Shown here: positions 42,688 through 55,872 of the stretch, piece after piece | Position numbering within the stretch: position 1 is the first letter of the stretch | How the letters are laid out: every line of letters begins with the position of its first letter | Source of the DNA: Paracoccus hibiscisoli | Lineage (GTDB): Bacteria > Pseudomonadota > Alphaproteobacteria > Rhodobacterales > Rhodobacteraceae | Assembly: GCF_005048265.1 (NCBI RefSeq) | Contig: NZ_SUNH01000007.1 | Coordinates: forward strand, 1-64,000 | Direction: 5' to 3' | Length of the DNA: 64,000 nt | Translations under genes and position numbers: made by a program | The notes under the pieces: generated by a model | What the model was told of the DNA's origin: nothing | The model's input: the letters and a program-made list of their open reading frames with translations, nothing else | The model's database searches: none

Positions 42688-45600
42688 ATGTCCGGCAATA
42701 CGCCCGCTGCCCGCGCAATTGCGCAGATCGACGCCCTCTATGGTGCGCAGACCGCCCCCCAATCTACCGACATCAAGGCGATTTCGCGCAAGACGCGCGT
42801 GCCGGTCAATGTGCTGGTGGCGCTGGACGAGGGCCGCGGCGATCTGAAGGCGGTCGAGGCTCATGCCACCCGGATCGCGCAGGCGGTCGAGGCGGGCAAG
42901 CCGATCGAGGATGCCATCTATGAGGTTGCGGGCGACGAGGGGCGCGGGCGGGCTATCCTGGACACCGCCTATGATCTGGCAGACCGGATGGAGCCCCCTG
43001 CCCCCGCCGCCGCCGACAGCGGCAATGATGGGCGCGTGGGTATCGCGGAAGGCGTGGCCGGGATCGCGCGGGATTTCGGATCGGGGATGCTGCGCGCGGG
43101 CGGTGGTGCGCTGGAAGCGGCCGGCGTGGTGGCCGACGAGGCCGTACGCGGCGCGTTCAGCGATGATCCGTCCCAGGCAACGCCCCTGCGCGGAGCAGGC
43201 CGGGCGGCGGGCGACGTGGCGCGCGGCGCGGGCGAAGGCATCGCGGCGGGGCGCAGCGAGGATTACCAGCGTGTGCGCGAGGGCACGCAGCCGGGCGGCA
43301 GTCTGGCGGACCCGTCCAGTTGGTCCCTTGGCGACGATCCGTCAATGCTGGGCCTTGCGGGCCTGACTGCCGAGGGTCTGGGTTCCATGGCCCCCGTGGT
43401 GGCCGCTGGCGTCCTGACCAAGAGCCCGGCGCTGGCCGGTTCGATCGTCGGCGGCCTGATGGGCGGCGGCGAGGGCGTCGAGACGGGCCGCCAGTTCGTC
43501 CAGGACGCGGCCAAGACCCTGGATGAGAACGGGCGCCCGGTCATCGAGGGACTGCCGGAATACCAGAAGTTGCGCGAGGCGGGCACCAGCCACGACCGCG
43601 CCGTGGCCGATCTGACGCGCCGGGCCGAGAACGAGGCCGGGTTCCGGCAGGGCATGGTGGCGGGCCTGGGCGGCGCTGCGACCAACCGCATCCTGATGGG
43701 CGCTGACGGCTGGCTTGGGCGCGGCGGGCGGCTGGCGCGCGCTGGCAAGAAGGGCGCGGCGTCGGCGCTGGAGGAGGGCGCGCAGGAAACCGCAGAGGGC
43801 GTGGCCGGGGGCCTGGGCATCGAGGCGGCCACCGGGGCCAATGTCGACCTGATGGAGGACAGCTTCGGTGATTTCGTCGCGGGCTCGCTGGCCGGTGGCG
43901 CAATGGGCGCAGGCGCGGGCGCATTGGGGCGCGGAACGGATCGACCGGACCCGCAGCCCGACACCCCGCCTGCCCCGCCCGAGCGGCTGGCCCTGCCCGC
44001 GCCCGAGAACGGCGGCACGATCTTTGGCCGCCCACCTTCCGCCGACATCAACCCGGCGATGCCCTTGGGCCTGCCGTCTCCCACCAACGGCGGAACCATT
44101 ATCCCCCCGGCACCGGCCCCGCGCCAGCCGGGCGAGCCAGAGCCGATCACGGTTCGGCAGACCCCCGATTTAGCCGGGCCGTCTCCTGACGCGCCCGCAC
44201 CCTTGGTCCCGGCTGGCGGCAGCAGCCTGGATCAGACCGCCGCGCCTACCCTTTCCTCCTCCCTCGGGGCGGGCGCGGCGGTTCCTGATGCCGGAATGGG
44301 TATCATGCCCGTTCCCCCGGTTGCCCCGCCTGCCGGGCCAGTCGAAGCGATCGCACAGAGCCTTGCGGCGTCGATTCCGGCGCCGGTGGCCGAACCCGCC
44401 CCCCGGTTCCCCGATCAGAAGCCGGGCGCTACGGTCCTGCTGGGAAGCCCGGAAGGCGCGAACGAGAATGCGGTGTTCCTGCGCGAGACGCCCGAGGGCG
44501 CGCTGGTGCGGATTCAGGGCCAGGAGGTCGAGCTGACGCCCGAGGCGTTCGACGCGGCCCGCAATCAGGCCGAGGTGAACCAGAACCGCGAGGAAACCCC
44601 GCGGGGCGATCTGGGCGGCAACTCGGTGGCGGCATCGGTCGGCGCCAAGAAGCGCACCCCCATTGCCCTGTCGGTCGAGGAAGAATTTGCCCGGCTGAAC
44701 CCGGAGCAGGCCCGCAAGCGCCTCGACGGGCTGACGGCACAAGCCAAGCAGCGCGGCTGGGATGCCCGCCGCCGGAACCTGCGCACCATCCTGGAGGGGC
44801 GCATTGCACTCGGAGGACCGGCCAATGTGGAACCCACAAGCGCAGAAGATGGGCCCGAGGGCGGGCCTGCCCCCGCTGGGGTGGATGATGTGCGCGCGGA
44901 CAGCGGCGAAGGAGCTGCAGCGCGCGGGGTTCCTGACCAGGAAGGAGCGCAAGCGCCTGGTGGCATGGATCGAGAACCCGGAGAGGGAGCAACCCGACCC
45001 GAGCCTGACGGCGGTGCTGTGGGCGGTCTGGATGTGGCAGGCGACACCGGGAAGCTGGGCGGTTCACTGACCGCAGCCCGCGCGGCCGGGCTGATCACGC
45101 ACACCACCAAGAAGGGCAAGGCCAAGACCGGCTATGTGCTGCAAGGCGTGACCAAGGCCGAGGCCGACGCGATCGACCCCTATTCGTTCAAGAAGGACGG
45201 CGGCGTGTTCGTAAACGCCGAGCGGGCCGATGCGTTCGCGCCTGCTGAAAACGCAGCCAAATCCAACCCGGAGGTTCTCACAGTTGGTGTAGACAAACAG
45301 AAGCCCCCCCGTGTAAAAAGGGACACGCGGGAGGCCTCGAATGACAACGCACCGAATGTCGAAAACGGTCGAGTACGGAACCTGGCAACGGATGAAAGCC
45401 AGATGCCTACGGCCGACGCACAAGGATTATCCGACATACGGAGGGGCGGGGATAACGATAGCCCCGGAATGGGTGGACGACTTTCCGGCCTTCCTAGCGG
45501 AGGTCGGGCTGAAGCCGAGCCCAATCCACTCGATCGACCGGATCAAGCCGGAACTGGGCTATCGTCCAGGCAACGTTCGATGGGCGACGCCTCAGCAGCA

Positions 45601-48600
45601 AGCGGAGAACAGGCCGGGGTTCGTCAAAGACTTGGCGGGCAAAACGGCGATGGAAACAGCCAAAGCGGCGGGGATCGTTCCATCGACCCTGTATCGCAGG
45701 CTGGCAGTCGGGATGCCGATGGAGAAGGTGTTGAGCAACCAGCGCCTTCCAACCGGTCCATATCGGAGGATGCTGACCCACAACGGCGAGTCGCTTCCGC
45801 TGAAGGTATGGGCGCGGAAGGTGGGGTTGAAGCCAACGACACTTCGCGAGAGGCTACGGCGCGGCTGGACGGTCAATCAGGCACTGACGACGCGGGTGTA
45901 ACAGCCCCCGCCGCTGCCCCACCCCCGACCGGCGTGGCCGCGGCACTGTCCGACGCCGACCAGGCGCGCATGGCAGAGCTGAAGAATAAGCTGGCCGACC
46001 GGCTGCGGAACCAGGCCAACAGCGGCCTCGATCCCGAATTGCTGGGCATGGCCGTCGAGCTGACCGGCCTCTATGTGAAAGGCGGCATCCGCAAGTTCGG
46101 CGCCATGCTGCGCGATTTCATGGCCGACACAGGCCTGACGGCGCGCGAATCCCAACGCTACATGCGCGCGGCCTACAATGACGTGCGCGACAATGCCGAT
46201 CTGAACGGCGAGGACGTGAGCGCGTTCGACACCGCCGATCAGGTCATGGCCGAAGTCCGCGCCGCGCTGGCCGAGCCCGAGACGGCACCTGTCGAAACAG
46301 CCACATCGCAAGAATCGCCCGAAGGTGATAGCATCGGGCAGGACACTCAACCGGAGGGCGCGCCCGATGATCGAAACAGCACTGATGAAGGCGATGGTCG
46401 AGCAAGCCCCGACCGAGGCCCGCAAGATCCAGAAACGCGGCCCGAACGCGCTGAAGGATCACGTCAGCGCCGTGGTCGAGCGGACGCGGGCCAATCTGGA
46501 CCCGAACCCGACGCAGGACGATCCGGCGGGCGACGTGATGATGCGCGAGATGGTGATGGCCGAAGCGATGGCCGAGCTGTCGATGGGCAACGACTAGAGC
46601 CAGGCCGAAACCACGTTATCCCCGAGGGCGGCCTTGCCCTAAAAGGCGGCGACAAGACCCGCGCCCGTGCTGCCGTGAAGGCCATCGAGATCGTGCGCGA
46701 TCTGGAGCGCGAGGGGCGGCCTGCCACCTATAATGAACGTCAGCAGCTCGCCCAATACGGCGGTGCGGGCGTCCTCGCCCCTGCCCTGCCCAACAGCGCG
46801 GGCAAGATCAGGATGGAGGACATCGCCGCCGATCTGGACCACCTGCTGACGCCCGAGGAACGGGCGACCATCGAAAAGACCAGCCAATATGCCTTCTATA
46901 CGGCTGAACCCGTCCTGCGGAATATGTGGGCGCTGGCGCAGCGCCTTGGCTTCACCGGCGGCCAGGTGTTCGAGCCCGGTATGGGTGTGGGCGGTTTCGC
47001 GGGTACCATGCCCAAGAGCGTGTTCGGCCAGTATTCCGGCATCGAGCTGGATCATGTCACGGCCAAGATCGCCGCGGCGCTTTACCCGCAGTCGCACATC
47101 AAGCACGGCGATTTCATCCAGACCCCCATGCCGCGGGACTTCTACGACCTAGTGATCGGCAACCCGCCCTTCTCGCAGACCAAGATCACCGCCGACCCCG
47201 CCTATCCGCAGGGGTTCATGATCCACGACTATTTCTTCGCCAAGAGCCTCGACAGCGTGCGGCCGGGCGGCCTGCTGATGTTCGTGACCAGCGCCGGCAC
47301 GATGAACAAGCGCAACACCAAGGCCCGCGACTATCTGGCCGACCGGGCCGACTTGGTGGGCGCGGTCCGCCTGCCCAACACCGCCTTTGCGGAGAACGGC
47401 ACGCAGGTCACGACCGACATCATCGTGCTGCGCAAGCGTCTGGAGGGCGAGGCCGAGGCCAACCCGGCATGGCGCGAATCCACGCTGGTCACATACCCGG
47501 ATGGCAAGGGTGGCACGGTCGATCTGGCCGTGAACCGCTATTTCCAGGAGAACCCCGAGATGATCCTTGGGGAGCAGGGTGCATTCGACACGCTGGTCGG
47601 CGCCCCCCGGATCGGCGTGCGCCCGCGCGAGGGTGCGAACCTGGCGCGCGACCTGCGCACCGCCTTGGAGAGCTTTCCCGAGCGCATCATGTCGGCCCCG
47701 TCTGCCCTGCAGATGATGGACGGCCCCCGCGATGCCACCAGCGCCGAGACGAAAACCGGCAGCTATTACCTGAAGGATGGCGAGCTGTGGCAGTTCGACG
47801 GACGCGAGGGCAAGCCGGTCCAGCGCAAGGGCAAGAGCGGCGGCGGGATGACCAAGGGGGATTACGAGCTGATTACCCAGCTGGTGCCCATCAGGAACGC
47901 CCTGCGCGCCGTCTATACCGCCGATCTGGCCGAGACGGATGCCACCGCCGCCCGAGCGGAGCTGAACCGCCTCTATGACGCCTTCGTGGAAAAGAACGGC
48001 CCCCTGAACAAGGTCGAGGAAAGCTATCGCCGCCCGTCCGCTGTTGAGCTGGAAGGGCTGCGCCAGCGTGCGGCCGAGGACGCGCGGTCTGCCGGGCTGG
48101 ATTTCGACACCGGCAGCTTCGATGCCGGGCCGCTGATCGAGGCAGAGGCCAGCATGGCCGCCATCGCCCGCGCGCGGCGCGAGGCCTCCCATGAGCCGGG
48201 ATACCGGGAAGGCACGTTCAACCCCGATGCCGTGCCCGACAAGGTGATCGAGAAGTTCCCGAACATGGACCCCTTCCGGGGCGATCCCGAATCCTTCCGG
48301 CTGCGCGCCATCGAGAAGTTCGACCGGGCAACCGGCCAGGCCCGCAAGACCCGCGTGTTCACCGAGAACGCGGTGAAGAAGGCCACCGCGCCCAAGATTA
48401 ATTCCCCCGAGGATGCACTCCTGCACCAGCTGGCCGATACCGGGCGGATCGACATCGACCGGATCGCGGAGGCATCGGGATCGACGCCTGAGCGCGTCCG
48501 CGCCGAGTTGAAGGGCAAGGTGTTCGAGAACCCGGCCACGGGCGAGATGGAGACGCGGACCCGCTACCTTTCGGGCAATGTGCGGCGCAAGCTGGCCGAG

Positions 48601-51600
48601 GCGCAGGCCGCCATCGCACGCGACATCCGCTTTGCCGAGAACGTGGCCGAGTTGGAGAAGGTCATCCCCGACCCGATCCCGCGCAGCGGCATTGTCGTAC
48701 CCCTGGGCGCGCATTGGTTCGATCATGGCCTCTATGCTGAGTTCGCCAAGTCGAAAGGGCTGACCCTCAAGGCCGAGTTCAAGCGCGCCCTGGGCCAGTG
48801 GATTGTCGATGGCGATAAGAGCAGCGCACCGGCCAAGAACGAATGGGGCACCGAGGACGTGCCGTTCGCGGAGATGATGCGCCGCGCCATGAACAACAAG
48901 CCCATGCGCGTGTCGCGGACGGTGAAGAACGCGGATGGCAGCACCACGACCTTTGTGGACGAGGAAGCCACCCAGGCCGCCGCCGACAAGGCAGCCGAGC
49001 TGCGCACCGCCTTTGCCGACTGGCTGTGGTCCGACGAGGCCCGGGCCGAGATGCTGGAGGAACGCTATAACGAGGCGTTTAATGCCGAGGTGGCGCCCGT
49101 CTATGATGGTGCCTACCTGACCACGCCGGGTATCAACGCAGGCTGGACCTGGCGGCCCCACCAGACCGCTGTTGTCGCGCGCATCCTGCAGTCGGGCAGC
49201 ACCTACATGGCCCATGCGGTCGGCGCCGGTAAAACCAGCGCCATGATCGGCGCAGGCATGGAGGCCCGCCGCCTCGGGCTGGCACAGCGCCCGTGGTATT
49301 CGGTCCCGAACCACATGCTTGTGCAGTTCGCCACCGAGTTCCAGGAGCAATACCCGCTGGCGAATATCCTGGTTGCGGACGAGAACAACTTCCAGGGCGA
49401 CCGTCGCCGCCAGTTCGTCGCGGACGCGGCCAGCGGCGATTACGATGCCGTCATCATCACGCACAGCGCGTTCGAGCTGATCCCGTCCAGCCCCGCCGCC
49501 AAGGCCGCTGTGGTCGAGGGGATGCTTGCCGACCTGCGCGAGCTGATCCAGGACCAGAGCGACAACCCACGCGATCGAGTGCCCGGCCAGGATCAGGCCA
49601 CCCTGGGCGCGCTGAAATCCGTCGCTGCGGCCTTGGGCATCAAGGAAGGCAAGAAGGACGCAGGCGATAAGGTCAGCACCGCCAAGAAGATCGCGCAGAT
49701 GATGGAGCAGGCCGAACAGCGCCTGACCGCCATGACGCAGGACACCGGCAAGGACGAGGTGTTCACCTTCGATGAGATCGGCGTCGACATGCTGTTCGTG
49801 GACGAGGCCCATCTGTTCCGCAAGCTGTCCTTCGCCACGACCAACGGCAGCATCAAAGGCATCGACCCCAAGGGGTCCAGCATGTCGATGGACCTCTACA
49901 TCAAATCTCGATCGGTGGACCGGCGCAATCCGGGCCGCGGGCTGGTGTTCGCCTCGGGAACGCCGATCACCAACACCATGGCCGAGCTGTTCAGCCTGCA
50001 GCGTTTCATGCAGCCGCAGGCGTTGGACGAGCGCAACATCAGCGCCTTCGATGCCTGGGCGGCAACCTTTGGCGAGGTGGCGAGTGAATTGGAGCAGACC
50101 CCGGATGGGGGCTACAAGGAGGTCAGCCGGTTCAGCAAGTTCGTGAACACGCCCGAGCTGTCGTTGATGGTGCGGCAGGTCATGGACATCGTGACCAGCG
50201 CCGACCTTGAGAAATACGTCACCCGCCCGCAGCTGCGCGGCGGCGGGCGCAACCTGGTCGTGATCGAGTCCAGCCCGGAGCAGAAGGCGTTCCAGCGCGA
50301 CCTGGCCGCTCGCATGAGGGCCATGCAGCAGCGCAAGGGCAAGCCGAAGCCCGGCGATGACATCATGCTGAACGTGGTGAACGATGGCCGCCTGGCTGCG
50401 ATCGACATGCGGCTTGTGGACCCCACCGCCAGCGGCGAGGGCTCGAAGCTTGAGCGGATGATCCAGAATGTCTATCAGGGCTGGAAGGCCGGGGCCGATG
50501 CGCCCCTGCATGGCGTGAAGCCGGAAGGCGGCTATACCGCCAAGCCGGTGATGCGCGGCGCCACCACGCAGATCATCTTTTCCACGCTTGGCGTGAACCC
50601 CTCGAAGCACAATCCGAGCTTTTCGGTGCATCGCCATATCAAGGCATCACTGATCCGCATGGGCGTGCCCGAGAGCGACATCATCATGGCGGGCGACCTG
50701 AAATCGCACCTGGCCAAGCAGCGCGCGTTCAACGACATGAACGAGGGCAAGCGCCGAATCCTGATCGGGTCCAAGTCGATCTTCACGGGCGTCAACGCGC
50801 AGCGCCGCCTGGCGCAAATCCACAACCTCGACCCGCTATGGTTCCCCGCCGACGATGAGCAGCGCAACGGGCGCGGCATCCGGCAGGGGAACATGAACCC
50901 CGAGATCGCGATCAACGACTATTCGACCAAAGGCACCTATGACGCGACCATGTGGCAGATGATGGGCCGCAAGGCCGCATTCATCGAGGGCTTCTATCGC
51001 GGCGACCCGACCATGCGGGACATGGAGGATCTGGGCGAGGCCAGCGCGTTCGAGCAGGCCAAGGCCATGACCACGAGCGACCCGCGCATCCTGCAGCTGA
51101 CCGAGCTGAAAACCGAGCGCGACAAGCTGCGCCGCCGGGCGGGGGCCGTGGATACGCAGCGATCCAAGCTGCGCGCGCAGATCAGGTCGGCCATGCGCGG
51201 AATCGAGTTCAACCGCGACGAGGCGCGCAAAGTCGAACCCATCACGGGGGTGATCCCCGATCTTTCGGGCGACAAGTTCAAGATGCGCGTCGGCGCCACC
51301 GAGTTCGACAGCCGCAAGGAGGCTGGCGAGGCGATCATGGCGCGCGTCGAGGCGCTGGCCGAGGCTGGCAAGTCGGTGAGCGAGATTGTCGTCGGCAACA
51401 TCGGCGGGTTCCCCGTCGAGGCTGACTGGTCGGAGCTCATGAAAAGCGCCCGCGTGGGCGTCCGTCACAGCCCGGTCATGGACCTGGCCGATGCCGAGTT
51501 CAGCGACGATCCCGTGGGCCTTGTCCGCAAGCTGGAACACGCCCTGAAGAAGCCGGAACGCTATCTGGAGTTCTATCAGGCCGAGGGGGCCAAGGCCGAG

Positions 51601-54600
51601 CGCCAGGCCGCCGCGCTGCGCGCCCAGCTGGAGGGCGTGAAGGAGTTTGCCGACCAGGCTAAGCTGGATGGCCTGGAAACCGAGATTGACACGCTGCAGG
51701 CGGCGCTGGTCGCGGATGCGGCGGCGGCCGAGGCCGAAGGCAATCAGGACGGACAGGTGGATGCCCCGCAGGAGTCCCGCTTCACAGCCGAGCCGGTTGT
51801 GAGCCTCACGGGCGACGAGCTGGGGGATTGGTCGGATATGCGCGACCTAGGCATGAAAGCCGAGGCTTGGTATCGGGAGAACCTTGTCGGCACGACCGTC
51901 ACGATGGGCCAAACAGGCTGGAAGGTGCAGTTTGGCCGCGTGGGCTCGAAGAAGTTGGGCGGCCGGAAAGGTGATTTCCTGCTGCGGGCCGTGCCAGCCC
52001 TCGCGGCAATGATCGAGCAAGGAACGCTCGTTTCGAGCCAAGGCGACAGGAAGCGCGGCAACGAACGTCTGAAGTTCCATACCGTCCGGGCGCGTGTCTC
52101 GGTCGGCGGAGAGACGCATAATCTGTTCATCACCATCCGAGAGGACGGTAATGGCCACTATCACTATGATCTGTCGATGGAGAACGGTGCCGAGGTCAGA
52201 AATTCAGGCGCGGCTGGTCGGGTAACTGAAGCCCGGAGCGGCGGTCTGAACGACCTCGGCACAATCAACATGGAGATCGCGGACAACTCTGTCAACGGCG
52301 CTGATCCTGAAATGACCCCTGCTTTTGCGCGTGCGATCAACGCTGCGGCCCGCGCGGAGCTGGAGAAGATCGGGATTGCCGGTCGTGTCCGGGCCGAGGC
52401 CGGGGGCGAGGGCCGCGCGGCTGGCACCTATCAGCGCGGCGTCATCCGCATCCTTCGCACCCGCGCAGGCAAGTGGCGGCACACGCTCGATCACGAGATA
52501 CTGCACGCTCTGCGCGACCCCGAGGCCTGGAGCGGCGAGGCGGGCCTGTTCACCCGGGCGGAATGGAGCGCCCTGGCGCGGGCGGCGCGGGCCGACAAGG
52601 CCGTGCGCGAGCGCGTCGAGGCGGCCTATCCTGATCTGACCGAGGCCGGGCGCACCGAGGAGATGGTGGCGGAGTTCTATGCCGATTGGGCACAGGGCAA
52701 CCGTGAGGCCCCTGCCGGGCCGATGGCAAATGCCCTGGGCCGCATCCGATCCTTCTTCAATGCCGTGGCGTCCGCGCTGCGCGGCGAGGGGTTCCAGGAC
52801 GCGGCCACGATCATGCGGCGGATCGCCGGGGGCGAGGTCGGCGGGCGCGGGCCGGATGGGCCCGGTACCGGGCGCGGCGCGGCGCGCGAGCAGCGTAACA
52901 TGGATGGCCTGACCAGTGCCCTGCGCGAGGGTGCCGCCCGGACCCGGAAACGGAGCGGGGTGGCCGCCCGCGCGCTGTTCAGCCGCGAGGCATGGAGCAA
53001 TTCGCCCGAGGTGTTCAGCAATTTCCTGACCGACGCCATGGGCCGCAACCAGCAGTTCAACCTGCTGGGCGCGGTGCCGGGCTATTCCCTGTTCAAGGAG
53101 CTGGGCAAGAACCTGTCGGCGGCCCAGACCTATCTGGGGCTCAAGCAGTCGATGGATGCCGAACGCAACGACTGGCAGGCCCGCGCCGCCGCAGCGGTGG
53201 ACGAGTGGACCAAGATCGGCCGCAAGGACCAGGAGGCCAACACCCGCCTCATGGACCTGATGCACGAAAGCACGCTGGCTGGTATCGACCCGAGCAAGAC
53301 CGACGACTGGCGGCACCCGCACCTGGACAGCGCGCGGCGCATCGACCGCGCCGATGTTGCCAGCCCCGAGGATCGCGCCTTTGCCGCCCGCGTGGCGCAG
53401 GAGATCGCGGACCATGAGGCAACCTATGACCGCCTCAAGCGGCAGTTCGACGCGCTGCCGGCCGATTTCCAGTCCCTCTATGGCAAGGTCCGCGACGAAT
53501 ACGCGACTATGGCCGACGCGACCGATCAGGCCGTGCTGGACAACGTGAAGGTGGCGAACGAGCTGGCACTGAAGCGTGCCCAGAAGAAGCACAAGGACGA
53601 GATGCAGCGCATCAAGGACGAGGGGCTGACCGGGGCTGCGCGCGACGAGGCCGTCGACCAGGCCGACCGTCGCCTGGCCGCCACCCAGAAGCGGGCGCGG
53701 GACAACGGCGCGGCCAGGATGGCAAGTCTGCGCGCAGCCTTCGAGACGAACCGCCTCAAGGGCCCGTATTTCCCGCTCGCTCGCTTCGGCAGCTATTTCG
53801 TCTCCGTGCGGGATGCCGATGGCGCTGTCATTTCGTTCAGCCGGTTCGAGAAGAAAGCCCAGCAGGAGGACGAGGTGGCCCGCGCCGAAAAAGAGGGCGC
53901 GGCGGAAGGCTGGACCGTCACCCGTGGCGTCCTGGGCGGCGATGCCGACCTGAAAGGCATGGTGGACCCGCGCTTTGTGAGCGAGGTCGAGGGCATTCTG
54001 TCGGAATCGGACGCCAGCCCGGAGACGATGGACGCGATCTGGCAGCATTGGCTGGAGAGCCTGCCTGACCTGTCGGTGCGCAAGAGCCGGATCCACCGCA
54101 AGGGCCGGTCAGGATTCAACAAGGATGCGGTGCGGGCCTTTTCGTCGGCGATGTTCCACGGCGCGCACAACCTGGCGCGGCTGCGGTATGGCCTGCGCAT
54201 GGATGATGCCCTGAACGAGGCCGAGGCGCAGGCCGGGCGTCAGGCTGATCCCGAGCGGGCCGGGTTCGTGGTGCGTGAGATGCGCCAGCGGCACAATTTC
54301 ACCATGAAGCCGACGAACAACCCGTTGGTGACGGCGGGCACGTCGCTCGCCTTCGTCTGGTATCTGGGCATGTCGCCTGCCTCTGCGCTGGTCAACATCA
54401 GCCAGACCACCATCTTCGGCGTGCCGATCCTGCGCACAGCCTTCCCCAAGGCGGGCGTGACGGGAGCCACAAAAGCCCTGGGCAAGGCCGCCGCTGATTT
54501 CGGGCGCGGCAAGGGCTGGACCGAGCGCAGCAAGAACCTGACCGAGGATGAGCGGGCCGCGATCCAGGAAGGCTATCGCCGGGGCACGATCGACAAGACG

Positions 54601-55872
54601 CAGGCGCATGATCTGGCCGCCGTCGCGGAGTCGGGCGTAGCCTACAACCCGACCCGCGAGAAGGTGATGCGGACCATCGGGTTCATGTTCCACCATGCCG
54701 AGCGCCTGAACCGTGAGGTGACGTTCCTGGCAGCCTACCGGCTGGCGCGGGCGGATGGTCGCGATCATGATGCCTCGATCAACGATGCCGCCGACCTGAC
54801 CTGGCGCACGCATTTCGATTACCAGAACACCGCGCGCCCGCGGATGATGCAGGGGGATTTCGAGAAGATCATCTTCACCTTCCGCAATTTCACGGTGAAC
54901 GCGCTGTATCGCCTATTCCGCGACACGCACCAAGCGTTCGCGGGCGCCACGGCAGAGGAACGGCGCGAGGCACGCGGCCAGCTGGTCGGCGTCAGCCTGT
55001 CGATGATGGCCCATGCCGGGATCAAGGGCGTCTGGGGCTATGGCCTGTTGATGGCCCTGCTGGGCGCGGTGATGCCGGGCGGCGATGGCGACGACATCGA
55101 GGACTGGATTCAGGACGCGCTTCTGATGGAGGGCGATGATCTGGGCACGGCCGCATGGAATTGGGCGATGGGCATGGTCCTGCACGGCGTTCCCGGAACG
55201 GTCACAGGTACCAGCCTGACGGAACGGCTTGGGATGCCAAACCTGTGGTTCCGCCCCCCTCGCGAGGGCACCGAAGGCCAGGACGTTTGGGCGCACTACC
55301 TGGAGCAGTTTGCGGGGCCTGTCGTGGGTATCGGCGGGCAGTTCATGTCGGGCCTGTCGATGATCGGGGATGCCTGGTCGGAAGGGAACGGCGACAACCT
55401 GATGCGCGGCGCTGAGAAGCTGGTGCCCAATTTCGTGAGCAACGGCGTCATCAAGCCCGCCCGGTTCATGACCTATGGAGCGAACAGCTATTATGGCGAT
55501 CCGCTGATGGAGGTTGGGCCCCTCGATGCGGTGCGTACCGCCATGGGGTTCACGCCTGCCGAGCTGGCCGAGCGGTATCAGATCAACGCGCGCCTCAAGG
55601 CCCGCGAGCGGGAGATTACGGGCCGCCGCGCCCGCATCCACCGGCTGATCGGAAAGGCCATGCAGGATGGGGGCGAGATCCCGGCGCGCGTCATGCGCGA
55701 CATGCAGGAGTTCAACCGCGAGTTCCCCGAATACCCGATCACCCGCGACACGATCCGGCAGTCGATCCGCAGCCGAGCGCGGGCGAAGGAGCGCAACGAA
55801 TTCGGCGTGACGCTTAACAGCAAGCTGAATGACCGCCTGCGCGGCGAGATGCCCACGCCGGTCTATAACTGA
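42688..55872 (+). CDS. Giant polyvalent protein (4394 aa): DarB-like methylase-helicase with zincin, PLxRFG and LPD38
   Basis: Domains by residue: 1-105 helical head; 130-425 Gly/Ala-rich, membrane-like; Pro-rich linker; 713-795, 885-1071 and 1227-1303 low-complexity linkers that each contain a +1-frame ORF; 1310-1700 adenine methylase (FEPGMGVGGFAG near 1430, IGNPPFSQ near 1491); 2130-2800 SNF2-like helicase (HAVGAGKTSAM near 2175, DEAH 2372-2375); about 3050-3150 LPD3-like region; HEILH zincin 3269-3273 with a downstream Glu; PLARFG 3696-3701; LPD38-like from 3873; hydrophobic tail near 4100. DarB of phage P1 is packaged and injected to shield DNA from restriction. I infer the same here. 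The start has GGAGAAGCCCC. Confidence 0.92.
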   Translation: MSGNTPAARAIAQIDALYGAQTAPQSTDIKAISRKTRVPVNVLVALDEGRGDLKAVEAHATRIAQAVEAGKPIEDAIYEVAGDEGRGRAILDTAYDLADRMEPPAPAAADSGNDGRVGIAEGVAGIARDFGSGMLRAGGGALEAAGVVADEAVRGAFSDDPSQATPLRGAGRAAGDVARGAGEGIAAGRSEDYQRVREGTQPGGSLADPSSWSLGDDPSMLGLAGLTAEGLGSMAPVVAAGVLTKSPALAGSIVGGLMGGGEGVETGRQFVQDAAKTLDENGRPVIEGLPEYQKLREAGTSHDRAVADLTRRAENEAGFRQGMVAGLGGAATNRILMGADGWLGRGGRLARAGKKGAASALEEGAQETAEGVAGGLGIEAATGANVDLMEDSFGDFVAGSLAGGAMGAGAGALGRGTDRPDPQPDTPPAPPERLALPAPENGGTIFGRPPSADINPAMPLGLPSPTNGGTIIPPAPAPRQPGEPEPITVRQTPDLAGPSPDAPAPLVPAGGSSLDQTAAPTLSSSLGAGAAVPDAGMGIMPVPPVAPPAGPVEAIAQSLAASIPAPVAEPAPRFPDQKPGATVLLGSPEGANENAVFLRETPEGALVRIQGQEVELTPEAFDAARNQAEVNQNREETPRGDLGGNSVAASVGAKKRTPIALSVEEEFARLNPEQARKRLDGLTAQAKQRGWDARRRNLRTILEGRIALGGPANVEPTSAEDGPEGGPAPAGVDDVRADSGEGAAARGVPDQEGAQAPGGMDREPGEGATRPEPDGGAVGGLDVAGDTGKLGGSLTAARAAGLITHTTKKGKAKTGYVLQGVTKAEADAIDPYSFKKDGGVFVNAERADAFAPAENAAKSNPEVLTVGVDKQKPPRVKRDTREASNDNAPNVENGRVRNLATDESQMPTADAQGLSDIRRGGDNDSPGMGGRLSGLPSGGRAEAEPNPLDRPDQAGTGLSSRQRSMGDASAASGEQAGVRQRLGGQNGDGNSQSGGDRSIDPVSQAGSRDADGEGVEQPAPSNRSISEDADPQRRVASAEGMGAEGGVEANDTSREATARLDGQSGTDDAGVTAPAAAPPPTGVAAALSDADQARMAELKNKLADRLRNQANSGLDPELLGMAVELTGLYVKGGIRKFGAMLRDFMADTGLTARESQRYMRAAYNDVRDNADLNGEDVSAFDTADQVMAEVRAALAEPETAPVETATSQESPEGDSIGQDTQPEGAPDDRNSTDEGDGRASPDRGPQDPETRPERAEGSRQRRGRADAGQSGPEPDAGRSGGRRDDARDGDGRSDGRAVDGQRLEPGRNHVIPEGGLALKGGDKTRARAAVKAIEIVRDLEREGRPATYNERQQLAQYGGAGVLAPALPNSAGKIRMEDIAADLDHLLTPEERATIEKTSQYAFYTAEPVLRNMWALAQRLGFTGGQVFEPGMGVGGFAGTMPKSVFGQYSGIELDHVTAKIAAALYPQSHIKHGDFIQTPMPRDFYDLVIGNPPFSQTKITADPAYPQGFMIHDYFFAKSLDSVRPGGLLMFVTSAGTMNKRNTKARDYLADRADLVGAVRLPNTAFAENGTQVTTDIIVLRKRLEGEAEANPAWRESTLVTYPDGKGGTVDLAVNRYFQENPEMILGEQGAFDTLVGAPRIGVRPREGANLARDLRTALESFPERIMSAPSALQMMDGPRDATSAETKTGSYYLKDGELWQFDGREGKPVQRKGKSGGGMTKGDYELITQLVPIRNALRAVYTADLAETDATAARAELNRLYDAFVEKNGPLNKVEESYRRPSAVELEGLRQRAAEDARSAGLDFDTGSFDAGPLIEAEASMAAIARARREASHEPGYREGTFNPDAVPDKVIEKFPNMDPFRGDPESFRLRAIEKFDRATGQARKTRVFTENAVKKATAPKINSPEDALLHQLADTGRIDIDRIAEASGSTPERVRAELKGKVFENPATGEMETRTRYLSGNVRRKLAEAQAAIARDIRFAENVAELEKVIPDPIPRSGIVVPLGAHWFDHGLYAEFAKSKGLTLKAEFKRALGQWIVDGDKSSAPAKNEWGTEDVPFAEMMRRAMNNKPMRVSRTVKNADGSTTTFVDEEATQAAADKAAELRTAFADWLWSDEARAEMLEERYNEAFNAEVAPVYDGAYLTTPGINAGWTWRPHQTAVVARILQSGSTYMAHAVGAGKTSAMIGAGMEARRLGLAQRPWYSVPNHMLVQFATEFQEQYPLANILVADENNFQGDRRRQFVADAASGDYDAVIITHSAFELIPSSPAAKAAVVEGMLADLRELIQDQSDNPRDRVPGQDQATLGALKSVAAALGIKEGKKDAGDKVSTAKKIAQMMEQAEQRLTAMTQDTGKDEVFTFDEIGVDMLFVDEAHLFRKLSFATTNGSIKGIDPKGSSMSMDLYIKSRSVDRRNPGRGLVFASGTPITNTMAELFSLQRFMQPQALDERNISAFDAWAATFGEVASELEQTPDGGYKEVSRFSKFVNTPELSLMVRQVMDIVTSADLEKYVTRPQLRGGGRNLVVIESSPEQKAFQRDLAARMRAMQQRKGKPKPGDDIMLNVVNDGRLAAIDMRLVDPTASGEGSKLERMIQNVYQGWKAGADAPLHGVKPEGGYTAKPVMRGATTQIIFSTLGVNPSKHNPSFSVHRHIKASLIRMGVPESDIIMAGDLKSHLAKQRAFNDMNEGKRRILIGSKSIFTGVNAQRRLAQIHNLDPLWFPADDEQRNGRGIRQGNMNPEIAINDYSTKGTYDATMWQMMGRKAAFIEGFYRGDPTMRDMEDLGEASAFEQAKAMTTSDPRILQLTELKTERDKLRRRAGAVDTQRSKLRAQIRSAMRGIEFNRDEARKVEPITGVIPDLSGDKFKMRVGATEFDSRKEAGEAIMARVEALAEAGKSVSEIVVGNIGGFPVEADWSELMKSARVGVRHSPVMDLADAEFSDDPVGLVRKLEHALKKPERYLEFYQAEGAKAERQAAALRAQLEGVKEFADQAKLDGLETEIDTLQAALVADAAAAEAEGNQDGQVDAPQESRFTAEPVVSLTGDELGDWSDMRDLGMKAEAWYRENLVGTTVTMGQTGWKVQFGRVGSKKLGGRKGDFLLRAVPALAAMIEQGTLVSSQGDRKRGNERLKFHTVRARVSVGGETHNLFITIREDGNGHYHYDLSMENGAEVRNSGAAGRVTEARSGGLNDLGTINMEIADNSVNGADPEMTPAFARAINAAARAELEKIGIAGRVRAEAGGEGRAAGTYQRGVIRILRTRAGKWRHTLDHEILHALRDPEAWSGEAGLFTRAEWSALARAARADKAVRERVEAAYPDLTEAGRTEEMVAEFYADWAQGNREAPAGPMANALGRIRSFFNAVASALRGEGFQDAATIMRRIAGGEVGGRGPDGPGTGRGAAREQRNMDGLTSALREGAARTRKRSGVAARALFSREAWSNSPEVFSNFLTDAMGRNQQFNLLGAVPGYSLFKELGKNLSAAQTYLGLKQSMDAERNDWQARAAAAVDEWTKIGRKDQEANTRLMDLMHESTLAGIDPSKTDDWRHPHLDSARRIDRADVASPEDRAFAARVAQEIADHEATYDRLKRQFDALPADFQSLYGKVRDEYATMADATDQAVLDNVKVANELALKRAQKKHKDEMQRIKDEGLTGAARDEAVDQADRRLAATQKRARDNGAARMASLRAAFETNRLKGPYFPLARFGSYFVSVRDADGAVISFSRFEKKAQQEDEVARAEKEGAAEGWTVTRGVLGGDADLKGMVDPRFVSEVEGILSESDASPETMDAIWQHWLESLPDLSVRKSRIHRKGRSGFNKDAVRAFSSAMFHGAHNLARLRYGLRMDDALNEAEAQAGRQADPERAGFVVREMRQRHNFTMKPTNNPLVTAGTSLAFVWYLGMSPASALVNISQTTIFGVPILRTAFPKAGVTGATKALGKAAADFGRGKGWTERSKNLTEDERAAIQEGYRRGTIDKTQAHDLAAVAESGVAYNPTREKVMRTIGFMFHHAERLNREVTFLAAYRLARADGRDHDASINDAADLTWRTHFDYQNTARPRMMQGDFEKIIFTFRNFTVNALYRLFRDTHQAFAGATAEERREARGQLVGVSLSMMAHAGIKGVWGYGLLMALLGAVMPGGDGDDIEDWIQDALLMEGDDLGTAAWNWAMGMVLHGVPGTVTGTSLTERLGMPNLWFRPPREGTEGQDVWAHYLEQFAGPVVGIGGQFMSGLSMIGDAWSEGNGDNLMRGAEKLVPNFVSNGVIKPARFMTYGANSYYGDPLMEVGPLDAVRTAMGFTPAELAERYQINARLKAREREITGRRARIHRLIGKAMQDGGEIPARVMRDMQEFNREFPEYPITRDTIRQSIRSRARAKERNEFGVTLNSKLNDRLRGEMPTPVYN
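44825..45070 (+). CDS. Nested ORF 1 inside the giant gene (+1 frame), Trp-rich protein
   Basis: 81 residues (MWNPQAQKMGPRAGLPPLGW, then KELQRAGFLTRKERKRLVAW) in the frame one base after the giant frame. CGGAGGACCGGCCA precedes the ATG, a near-ideal ribosome site. My count of its first 40 codons gives 37/40 with G or C at the third position, against 23/40 in the giant frame over the same bases. The giant frame here is a Gly/Ala/Glu/Pro-rich linker. Family unknown. It reads as a folded helical protein rather than a shadow. Confidence 0.55.
   Translation: MWNPQAQKMGPRAGLPPLGWMMCARTAAKELQRAGFLTRKERKRLVAWIENPEREQPDPSLTAVLWAVWMWQATPGSWAVH
45341..45901 (+). CDS. Nested ORF 2: HNH/HTH homing-endonuclease-like protein inside the giant gene
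   Basis: 186 residues in the +1 frame. ATG 45341 is preceded by GGGAGGCCTCGA. N-terminal YGTWQRMKARCLRPTHKDYP, TYGGAGITIAPEWVDDFPAF and HSIDRIKPELGYRPGNVRWA are the signature of a phage HNH-type family (His63, Asn78, Asn90 as likely metal/active residues). Two helix-turn-helix units follow (AKAAGIVPSTLYRRLAVG at 108-125; VWARKVGLKPTTLRERLRRG at 156-175), as in homing-endonuclease DNA-binding tails. Codons such as ATA, CTA and AGA are unlike its neighbours, a sign of transfer. The surrounding giant frame stays open throughout. It may cut phage DNA lacking the insert, spreading itself. Confidence 0.75.
   Translation: MTTHRMSKTVEYGTWQRMKARCLRPTHKDYPTYGGAGITIAPEWVDDFPAFLAEVGLKPSPIHSIDRIKPELGYRPGNVRWATPQQQAENRPGFVKDLAGKTAMETAKAAGIVPSTLYRRLAVGMPMEKVLSNQRLPTGPYRRMLTHNGESLPLKVWARKVGLKPTTLRERLRRGWTVNQALTTRV
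46367..46597 (+). CDS. Nested ORF 3 inside the giant gene (+1 frame), helical protein
   Basis: 76 residues (MIETALMKAMVEQAPTEARK, then DHVSAVVERTRANLDPNPTQ) in the +1 frame. CGGAGGGCGCGCCCG precedes the ATG. Third-position G/C counted over the first 40 codons is 34/40, against 16/40 for the giant frame, whose product here is an Asp/Gly/Arg-rich repeat-like linker. It lies directly before the methylase domain. Family unknown; the helix pattern suggests a small dimeric protein. Confidence 0.6.
   Translation: MIETALMKAMVEQAPTEARKIQKRGPNALKDHVSAVVERTRANLDPNPTQDDPAGDVMMREMVMAEAMAELSMGND

What the first reader, a model, noticed from the sequence alone, without database searches (positions are those of the whole stretch)
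44825..46597. Three separate genes hidden in the linkers of one giant phage gene
Seen: within the 4394-codon ORF, three intervals (44825-45070, 45341-45901, 46367-46597) contain an ATG ORF in the same +1 frame. Each has a GGAGG-type ribosome site 7-8 bases upstream (CGGAGGA, GGGAGG, CGGAGGG). In each, the giant-frame product is a charged, Gly/Asp/Glu-rich linker between structured blocks. Hand counts of G or C at third positions over the first 40 codons give nested versus giant 37 vs 23, 26 vs 22 and 34 vs 16. Elsewhere the giant frame looks normal (30/40 at the methylase start). Inference: small genes were inserted or evolved in-frame-neutral inside domain linkers, so the giant polypeptide stays unbroken while a second product is made. 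I know of no description of linkers in polyvalent proteins used as docking sites for overprinted genes.
Basis: partly seen in the sequence, partly recalled or inferred. Interest (0 to 1): 0.93.

Follow-up and report, generated by a model that had tools for sequence, protein, structure and literature searches.

The report
Small genes nested in giant linkers
A giant phage gene carries three small genes in a second reading frame inside its spacer regions, the same arrangement recurs in dozens of related phages and in Clostridia genomes, and the small genes are predicted to make proteins of their own that genome annotations have missed.

Summary
The 4394-codon ORF is a DarB-like methylase/SNF2 polyvalent gene; three linkers hold +1-frame ORFs with ribosome sites: N1, an HNH endonuclease (phrog_3377, E 4e-47) and N3. 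N3 marks a conserved slot: 46 of 51 giants carry a +1 ORF there that passes a coding filter, and in 40 examined closely the host frame has no stop. Of 16 phage-collection records read, 14 have a slot ORF; none annotates it as its own gene. N3 is distantly TnpV-like; in Clostridia 26 of 91 TnpV genes lie inside long host ORFs, all at +1. The small protein is better conserved than the host reading of the same DNA in 24 of 24 pairs. Where a wobble T would make a host stop, T occurs 0 of 375 times in phage N3, against 23% elsewhere. So the small gene is the conserved layer, the linker a read-through kept open. N1 recurs in four relatives; a whole nested HNH was seen only here. Weak points: codon shuffles of the window's N1 and N3 often leave the host frame open anyway, and translation is untested.

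The parts
42688..55872 (+). giant DarB-like polyvalent host ORF, 4394 codons
   Evidence: phrog_10089, N6_Mtase, Helicase_C, SNF2, LPD3, LPD39
44812..44817 (+). Shine-Dalgarno-like site of N1 (ggagga)
   Evidence: sequence
44825..45070 (+). nested ORF N1, 81 aa, +1 frame; an in-frame TTG at 44804 and ATG at 44762 lie upstream
   Evidence: relatives L001, L003, L021, L075; database proteins P0122, P0123
45329..45334 (+). Shine-Dalgarno-like site of the HNH ORF (gggagg)
   Evidence: sequence
45341..45901 (+). nested ORF N2, 186 aa, HNH endonuclease family, +1 frame
   Evidence: phrog_3377, residues 1-185, E 4e-47
46353..46358 (+). Shine-Dalgarno-like site of N3 (ggaggg)
   Evidence: sequence
46367..46597 (+). 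nested ORF N3, 76 aa, slot just upstream of the methylase, distantly TnpV-like, +1 frame
46873..50889 (+). methylase to helicase C-terminal domains of the host (residues 1396-2734)

Best explanation
The window's DarB-like giant phage gene holds three small genes (N1, an HNH endonuclease gene and a distantly TnpV-like gene, N3) in the +1 frame of its linkers; each is predicted to be translated from its own internal ribosome site, while the host frame, which has no stop there, would run through and make the giant protein with a likely disordered linker. Shown: the ORFs, their homologues and frame, the small gene's substitution pattern for N3 and TnpV, the absence of host stops. Inferred: internal initiation on the giant mRNA. 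Inferred too, why the frame is +1: the host codon's first base is then the small gene's wobble base, so each host stop begins with a wobble T, and NNT to NNC is always silent; any small gene can be made transparent to its host by silent changes alone. Likely origin (inferred): ordinary small mobile-element genes became enclosed, by insertion or by fusion of the genes on either side, and were kept. What N3 and N1 do is unknown; TnpV has been postulated in print to be excisionase-like, so a small DNA-transaction protein made together with the DNA-protecting giant is my best guess, held weakly.
For: HNH family match end to end. Slot ORF in 46 of 51 giants passing the filter; none of the same kind in 62,361 codons of methylase-helicase core. 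Host frame free of stops in 40 of 40 loci. 26 of 26 nested TnpV at +1, 23 of 26 hosts with methylase-helicase matches. Small protein better conserved than the host reading in 12 of 12 TnpV pairs and 12 of 12 N3 pairs. Wobble T in stop-making contexts 0 of 375 (phage N3) and 0 of 266 (nested TnpV) against 177 of 768 and 246 of 619 elsewhere. Nested TnpV starts have better ribosome sites than control starts (median -7.1 vs -4.3, p 2e-7). JC1's DarB-like giant is found in virions by mass spectrometry (PMC9144972, passages).
Against: No expression data. The 40 loci were picked as having an N3 ORF, and the nested TnpV class was defined by openness, so its zero stops are partly by definition. GC-rich DNA favours open +1 frames by itself; shuffles leave the window's N1 and N3 host frames open often. 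Ribosome sites of nested TnpV are weaker than those of free-standing TnpV (-10.1). Two of 16 phage-collection records and two of three plasmid records lack a slot ORF. N3 and TnpV are only distantly alike, and the window's N3 alone matches no family.
Confidence: 0.84

Rival explanations
1. Chance: in GC-rich DNA the +1 frame of a long gene is often open, and the ORFs mean nothing.
For: The filter also hits ordinary ORFs, 13 in 139,693 codons, all +1; codon shuffles leave N1 and N3 host frames open.
Against: Full-length HNH match; N3 profile hits across phages; TnpV nested in Clostridia giants where free-standing TnpV averages 8.7 stops in that frame; substitutions follow the small gene.
Confidence: 0.02
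2. Programmed frameshifting: ribosomes translating the upstream half shift into the N3 frame and end at its stop, making a short form of the giant that ends in N3; N3 is not started on its own.
For: In phage PBC5 the upstream ORF (orf33) runs in frame into N3 and the methylase is a separate gene.
Against: Start codons with ribosome sites at nested TnpV genes and at most N3 ORFs; TnpV exists as a free-standing gene. No slippery-site search was made.
Confidence: 0.07
3. The small genes are ordinary genes lying between two separate genes whose frames happen to be open and aligned; no full-length giant is made.
For: Downstream frames often stay open across an upstream neighbour in this GC-rich genome (by eye).
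Against: No host stop in 40 of 40 loci; stop-making wobble T absent while other wobble T persists; long host ORFs on both sides of the slot; JC1 gp69, 4515 aa, identified in virions with 51 unique peptides, though where they lie in the protein was not seen.
Confidence: 0.05
4. The nested genes are dead passengers, above all the HNH gene: remnants whose DNA now only serves as linker.
For: L029 keeps only a C-terminal HNH fragment in the corresponding linker; a whole nested HNH was seen only in the window.
Against: N3 and TnpV proteins are better conserved than the host reading of the same DNA. For HNH this stays open, as there is no whole nested relative to compare.
Confidence: 0.06

Closest known systems
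Embedded Rz1 spanin genes inside Rz (named for phage JC1 in PMC9144972, passage)
   Same: One small phage gene wholly inside another on the same strand in another frame.
   Different: One pair with a shared task; here several unrelated small genes lie in linkers of a multidomain giant, with a conserved slot and different occupants.
Pfam TnpV (PF14198), transposon-encoded protein
   Same: Clostridia nested genes are full members (L028, E 1.5e-31); phage N3 is distantly alike (8 of 29 members, best E 1.3e-4; profile comparison 93%).
   Different: The papers whose passages I saw treat TnpV as a gene of its own; here 26 of 91 lie inside another gene.
Phage HNH endonucleases of phrog_3377
   Same: Same family, matched end to end.
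   Different: Relatives read are not inside another same-strand ORF of any length (13 of 13).
Polyvalent proteins with methylase-helicase dyad, DarB type (Iyer 2017, PMC5512222, passages)
   Same: The host gene has this architecture.
   Different: The words TnpV, overlapping and linker do not occur in that paper's main text, and 'nested' only for a hairpin.

Membership tests
Same-strand nested overlapping genes | two complete ORFs, one inside the other, in different frames | tested here: met
Same-strand nested overlapping genes | both frames under selection | tested here: met
   for N3 and TnpV: small-gene conservation and absence of stop-making wobble T; not tested for N1 or HNH by pairs
Same-strand nested overlapping genes | both products made | not testable with these tools
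   no expression data
Pfam TnpV (PF14198) | window N3 scores above the curated cut-off of 27 bits | tested here: not met
   0 families for window N3; so TnpV-like, not a member
Pfam TnpV (PF14198) | Clostridia nested genes score above the cut-off | tested here: met
   L028 109 bits
phrog_3377 HNH endonuclease | full-length family match | tested here: met
   residues 1-185 to 4-188 of 196, E 4e-47
phrog_3377 HNH endonuclease | intact catalytic residues and cleavage | not tested
   no Pfam HNH match was found; no residue check or assay
DarB-like polyvalent protein | methylase and SNF2/SF2 helicase in one giant ORF with polyvalent domains | tested here: met

The most novel reading that the evidence does not exclude
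Linkers of methylase-SNF2 giants in phages and mobile elements are standing nesting sites for small genes: a conserved slot beside the methylase with exchangeable occupants (TnpV-like, a MIPPLQ family, others), plus further sites along the gene, tuned by silent wobble changes so that the host reads straight through. Part of the charged, disordered linker sequence of these giants is then small genes read out of frame, and a hidden set of phage and element proteins has been missed.
Probability: 0.6. Interest if true: 0.92.

Novelty: new variant of a known kind. Interest (0 to 1): 0.87.

Why it matters
It would add families of unannotated small proteins to sequenced phages of Burkholderia, Erwinia, Klebsiella, Vibrio and others and to Clostridia genomes, and explain where some charged linkers of polyvalent proteins come from. 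It also offers a code-level rule that can be tested on any genome for when one gene can be swallowed by another without harm: nest it at +1, where every host stop can be removed silently. Existing virion proteomics could test it at once.

Tried and rejected
GC3 alone as proof: rejected after the ordinary-gene control. The result that all 67 scan hits are +1 and none +2 or antisense is therefore not used as independent proof of frame; the sets found by homology are.

Linker hydrophilicity as the reason for +1: only partly borne out. Disorder-promoting residues are commoner at +1 than at +2 (0.73 vs 0.60 nested TnpV, 0.75 vs 0.65 phage N3), but the hydropathy score is as low or lower at +2. I dropped it from the explanation.

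N3 fold search: best E 4.4; PDB sequence search best E 0.12. The N1 model is poor (pLDDT 63) and was not searched.

N1 set: window, L001 and L003 were matched by eye; L021 was then found by their profile and P0122, P0123 by database search; VvAW1 was seen by eye and put into the later profile, which found no further relative. PEp14 L074:6374-6604 looks alike by eye but was not found, and is not counted.

An unfused three-gene ancestor in Clostridia: none among the free-standing loci.

Free-standing N3 in uncultured Ferrovibrio (P0052, P0067): listed as proteins on contigs up to 207 kb, but those contigs were not read. A class-wide genome search with the N3 profile rang in 2 of 385 genomes, one the window's own. 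Viral-contig scans with the N3 and N1 alignments returned only contigs already held.

Rows dropped: the 40 loci (window included) leave out duplicate contigs and four loci with profile hits but less certain starts (L040, L052, L066, L071). One search used loci and the 69 regions, not every place listed, and needed 70 profile positions; one of its 65 'free' genes has no stop in the equivalent frame (host ORF too short for my cut of 250 codons). Pairs share sequences. In one search two giants fell out because the match lay outside the longest ORF (L059, L068).
Full report
What is there. The window's 42688-55872 ORF (4394 codons) is a DarB-like polyvalent gene: phrog_10089, N6 methylase, SNF2/helicase, LPD3 and LPD39, in a region with terminase, portal and internal virion protein genes. 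Close named relatives are Paracoccus and other Rhodobacteraceae, so it is probably a prophage of that group (inference).

N2 is an HNH endonuclease gene. Its residues 1-185 of 186 match phrog_3377 (E 4e-47); 780 of 50,697 phage records hold a relative. A viral-contig scan gave 14 loci, one being the window's own contig; in the 13 others the equivalent frame is broken by 2 to 21 stops within the part compared. In the window it has none, with 11 in the remaining frame. L029 keeps only a C-terminal piece in the corresponding linker (181 bases, 79% identical), with the host frame open across it but stopped further upstream.

N3 is a conserved slot. Searches with the methylase module brought relatives from viral contigs and genomes. 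One search lists, for nearly every one, a +1 ORF ending close to the methylase match, and one profile recognises most of them. By filter (55 or more codons, ribosome site, GC3 swap), 46 of 51 giants have a slot ORF; of the five others, L065 begins at the match, L028 has its TnpV further upstream, and L046, L054 and L081 have ORFs that fail the filter. In 40 loci examined closely (window included, chosen for having the ORF, not for openness) the host frame has no stop in 40 of 40. Of 16 records from the phage collection, 14 carry a slot ORF: BcepIL02, PBC5, PEp14, VvAW1, Atu_ph08, LASTA, JC1, POI1126, Y7, Mwe-JY07, 8P, Itty13, DC1 and SopranoGao. Two do not: Bacteroides BKO1-TP3 and the Streptococcus element phi-SsuZKB4_rum. 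Of three plasmid records, Massilia has one; in Roseomonas and Aureimonas the methylase gene starts there as a gene of its own. None of the 14 annotates the ORF as a gene of its own; in PBC5 it is the tail of orf33. The occupants of L058, L060, L062, L063 and L081 show no likeness to the main family (0.1%), so the place is more conserved than the tenant.

N1 recurs in four relatives, L001, L003, L021 and phage VvAW1, nested at +1 each time, and in two more database proteins. It does not keep its neighbours: in the window it follows a block that in L001 it precedes (read from the translations).

The link to TnpV. Eight of 29 N3 members touch Pfam TnpV below its cut-off (best 1.3e-4); the window's own N3 does not. 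Profile comparison with free-standing TnpV gives 93% for the main N3 group, 46% and 23% for two phage groups, and 2% for the unrelated occupants. The Lachnospiraceae relative L028 has a full TnpV (E 1.5e-31) nested at +1 in its giant. TnpV rang in 76 of 196 Clostridia genomes. Of 91 distinct TnpV genes examined, 26 lie inside a long host ORF, all at +1, 23 with methylase-helicase matches in the stretch held; 65 do not, and these average 8.7 stops in the equivalent frame (range 0 to 16). In Clostridia the nested gene follows some 250-340 codons of host, not the methylase start, so the two nestings may be separate events.

Which frame is under selection. In 12 of 12 nested TnpV pairs and 12 of 12 phage N3 pairs the small protein is better conserved than the host reading of the same DNA (for window and L029, 0.76 against 0.55). 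Changes fall most on the small gene's third position in all 12 TnpV pairs and in 11 of 12 N3 pairs (L036-L059 is the exception). Where a T at the small gene's wobble position would make a host stop, T is found 0 of 375 times in phage N3 and 0 of 266 in nested TnpV, against 177 of 768 and 246 of 619 at other C/T wobble positions, and 538 of 993 in free-standing TnpV. The Clostridia zero is partly by definition, since nested genes were defined by an open host. Nested TnpV starts have better ribosome sites than control starts (median -7.1 vs -4.3), weaker than free-standing ones (-10.1).

Why +1 (inference). At +1 the host codon's first base is the small gene's wobble base. All stops begin with T, and NNT to NNC is always silent, so every host stop can be removed without touching the small protein. 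At +2 an ATG followed by A is a stop that cannot be removed silently; free-standing TnpV would have 2.0 of these per gene. The window's three linkers are 70%, 73% and 87% disorder-promoting residues against 55% for the whole giant.

Controls and limits. Filtered ORFs across 51 giants: 50 in the slot (2.40 per 1000 codons), 12 far upstream, 5 downstream, 0 in 62,361 codons of methylase-helicase core. In 277 ordinary ORFs of the same genome, 13 (0.09 per 1000), all +1. Codon shuffles of the window's own ORFs give an open host frame with probability 1.00 (N1), 0.03 (HNH) and 0.49 (N3). So GC-rich DNA favours +1 by itself, and the claim rests on homology, substitution pattern, the wobble test and the Clostridia set.

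Function and origin. N3 is predicted to be four helices (pLDDT 83.6) without a fold match. TnpV of Tn4451 was postulated to act in excision by likeness to lambda Xis (PMC3158075, passage). In Streptococcus suis, cargoes carrying TnpV insert into snf2 genes (PMC9815147, passages), which suggests but does not show how TnpV came to live in such hosts.

Novelty. Searches (open-licence papers; listings, with passages read) showed no description of nested genes in polyvalent linkers or of TnpV inside another gene. Papers outside that library, among them the founding Bcep22/BcepIL02 paper (recalled), were not seen. Nested genes as such are known, so I call this a new variant of a known kind.

Noticed in passing
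L049:17757-17966, L052:7893-8171, L054:15678-15860, L060:16035-16238, L066:4680-4874, L073:14696-14899: Further +1 nested ORFs far from the slot in other giants pass the coding filter; their families were not searched.
   Followed up: no
L029:8421-8675: C-terminal HNH remnant in the corresponding linker of a Paracoccus bogoriensis relative, host frame open across it, HNH front part absent.
   Followed up: partly
L092 and L125 (genome G433): A Clostridia giant gene has one TnpV nested inside it, and a second TnpV begins where a nearly identical giant's ORF ends.
   Followed up: partly
L073 (phage PBC5), 1853-8446: The upstream half of the giant runs in frame into N3 as orf33, and the methylase is annotated as a separate gene; a real or sequencing frameshift.
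   Followed up: partly
L205:5645-5917 (phage 8P): The slot holds a small ORF that by eye does not look TnpV-like.
   Followed up: no
L163 and L167 (genomes G519, G439): Clostridia giants with stops in the host frame in or shortly after the nested TnpV, close relatives of each other.
   Followed up: partly
L206 (phage Itty13): The public record annotates genes on the strand opposite to the DarB-like giant ORF.
   Followed up: no
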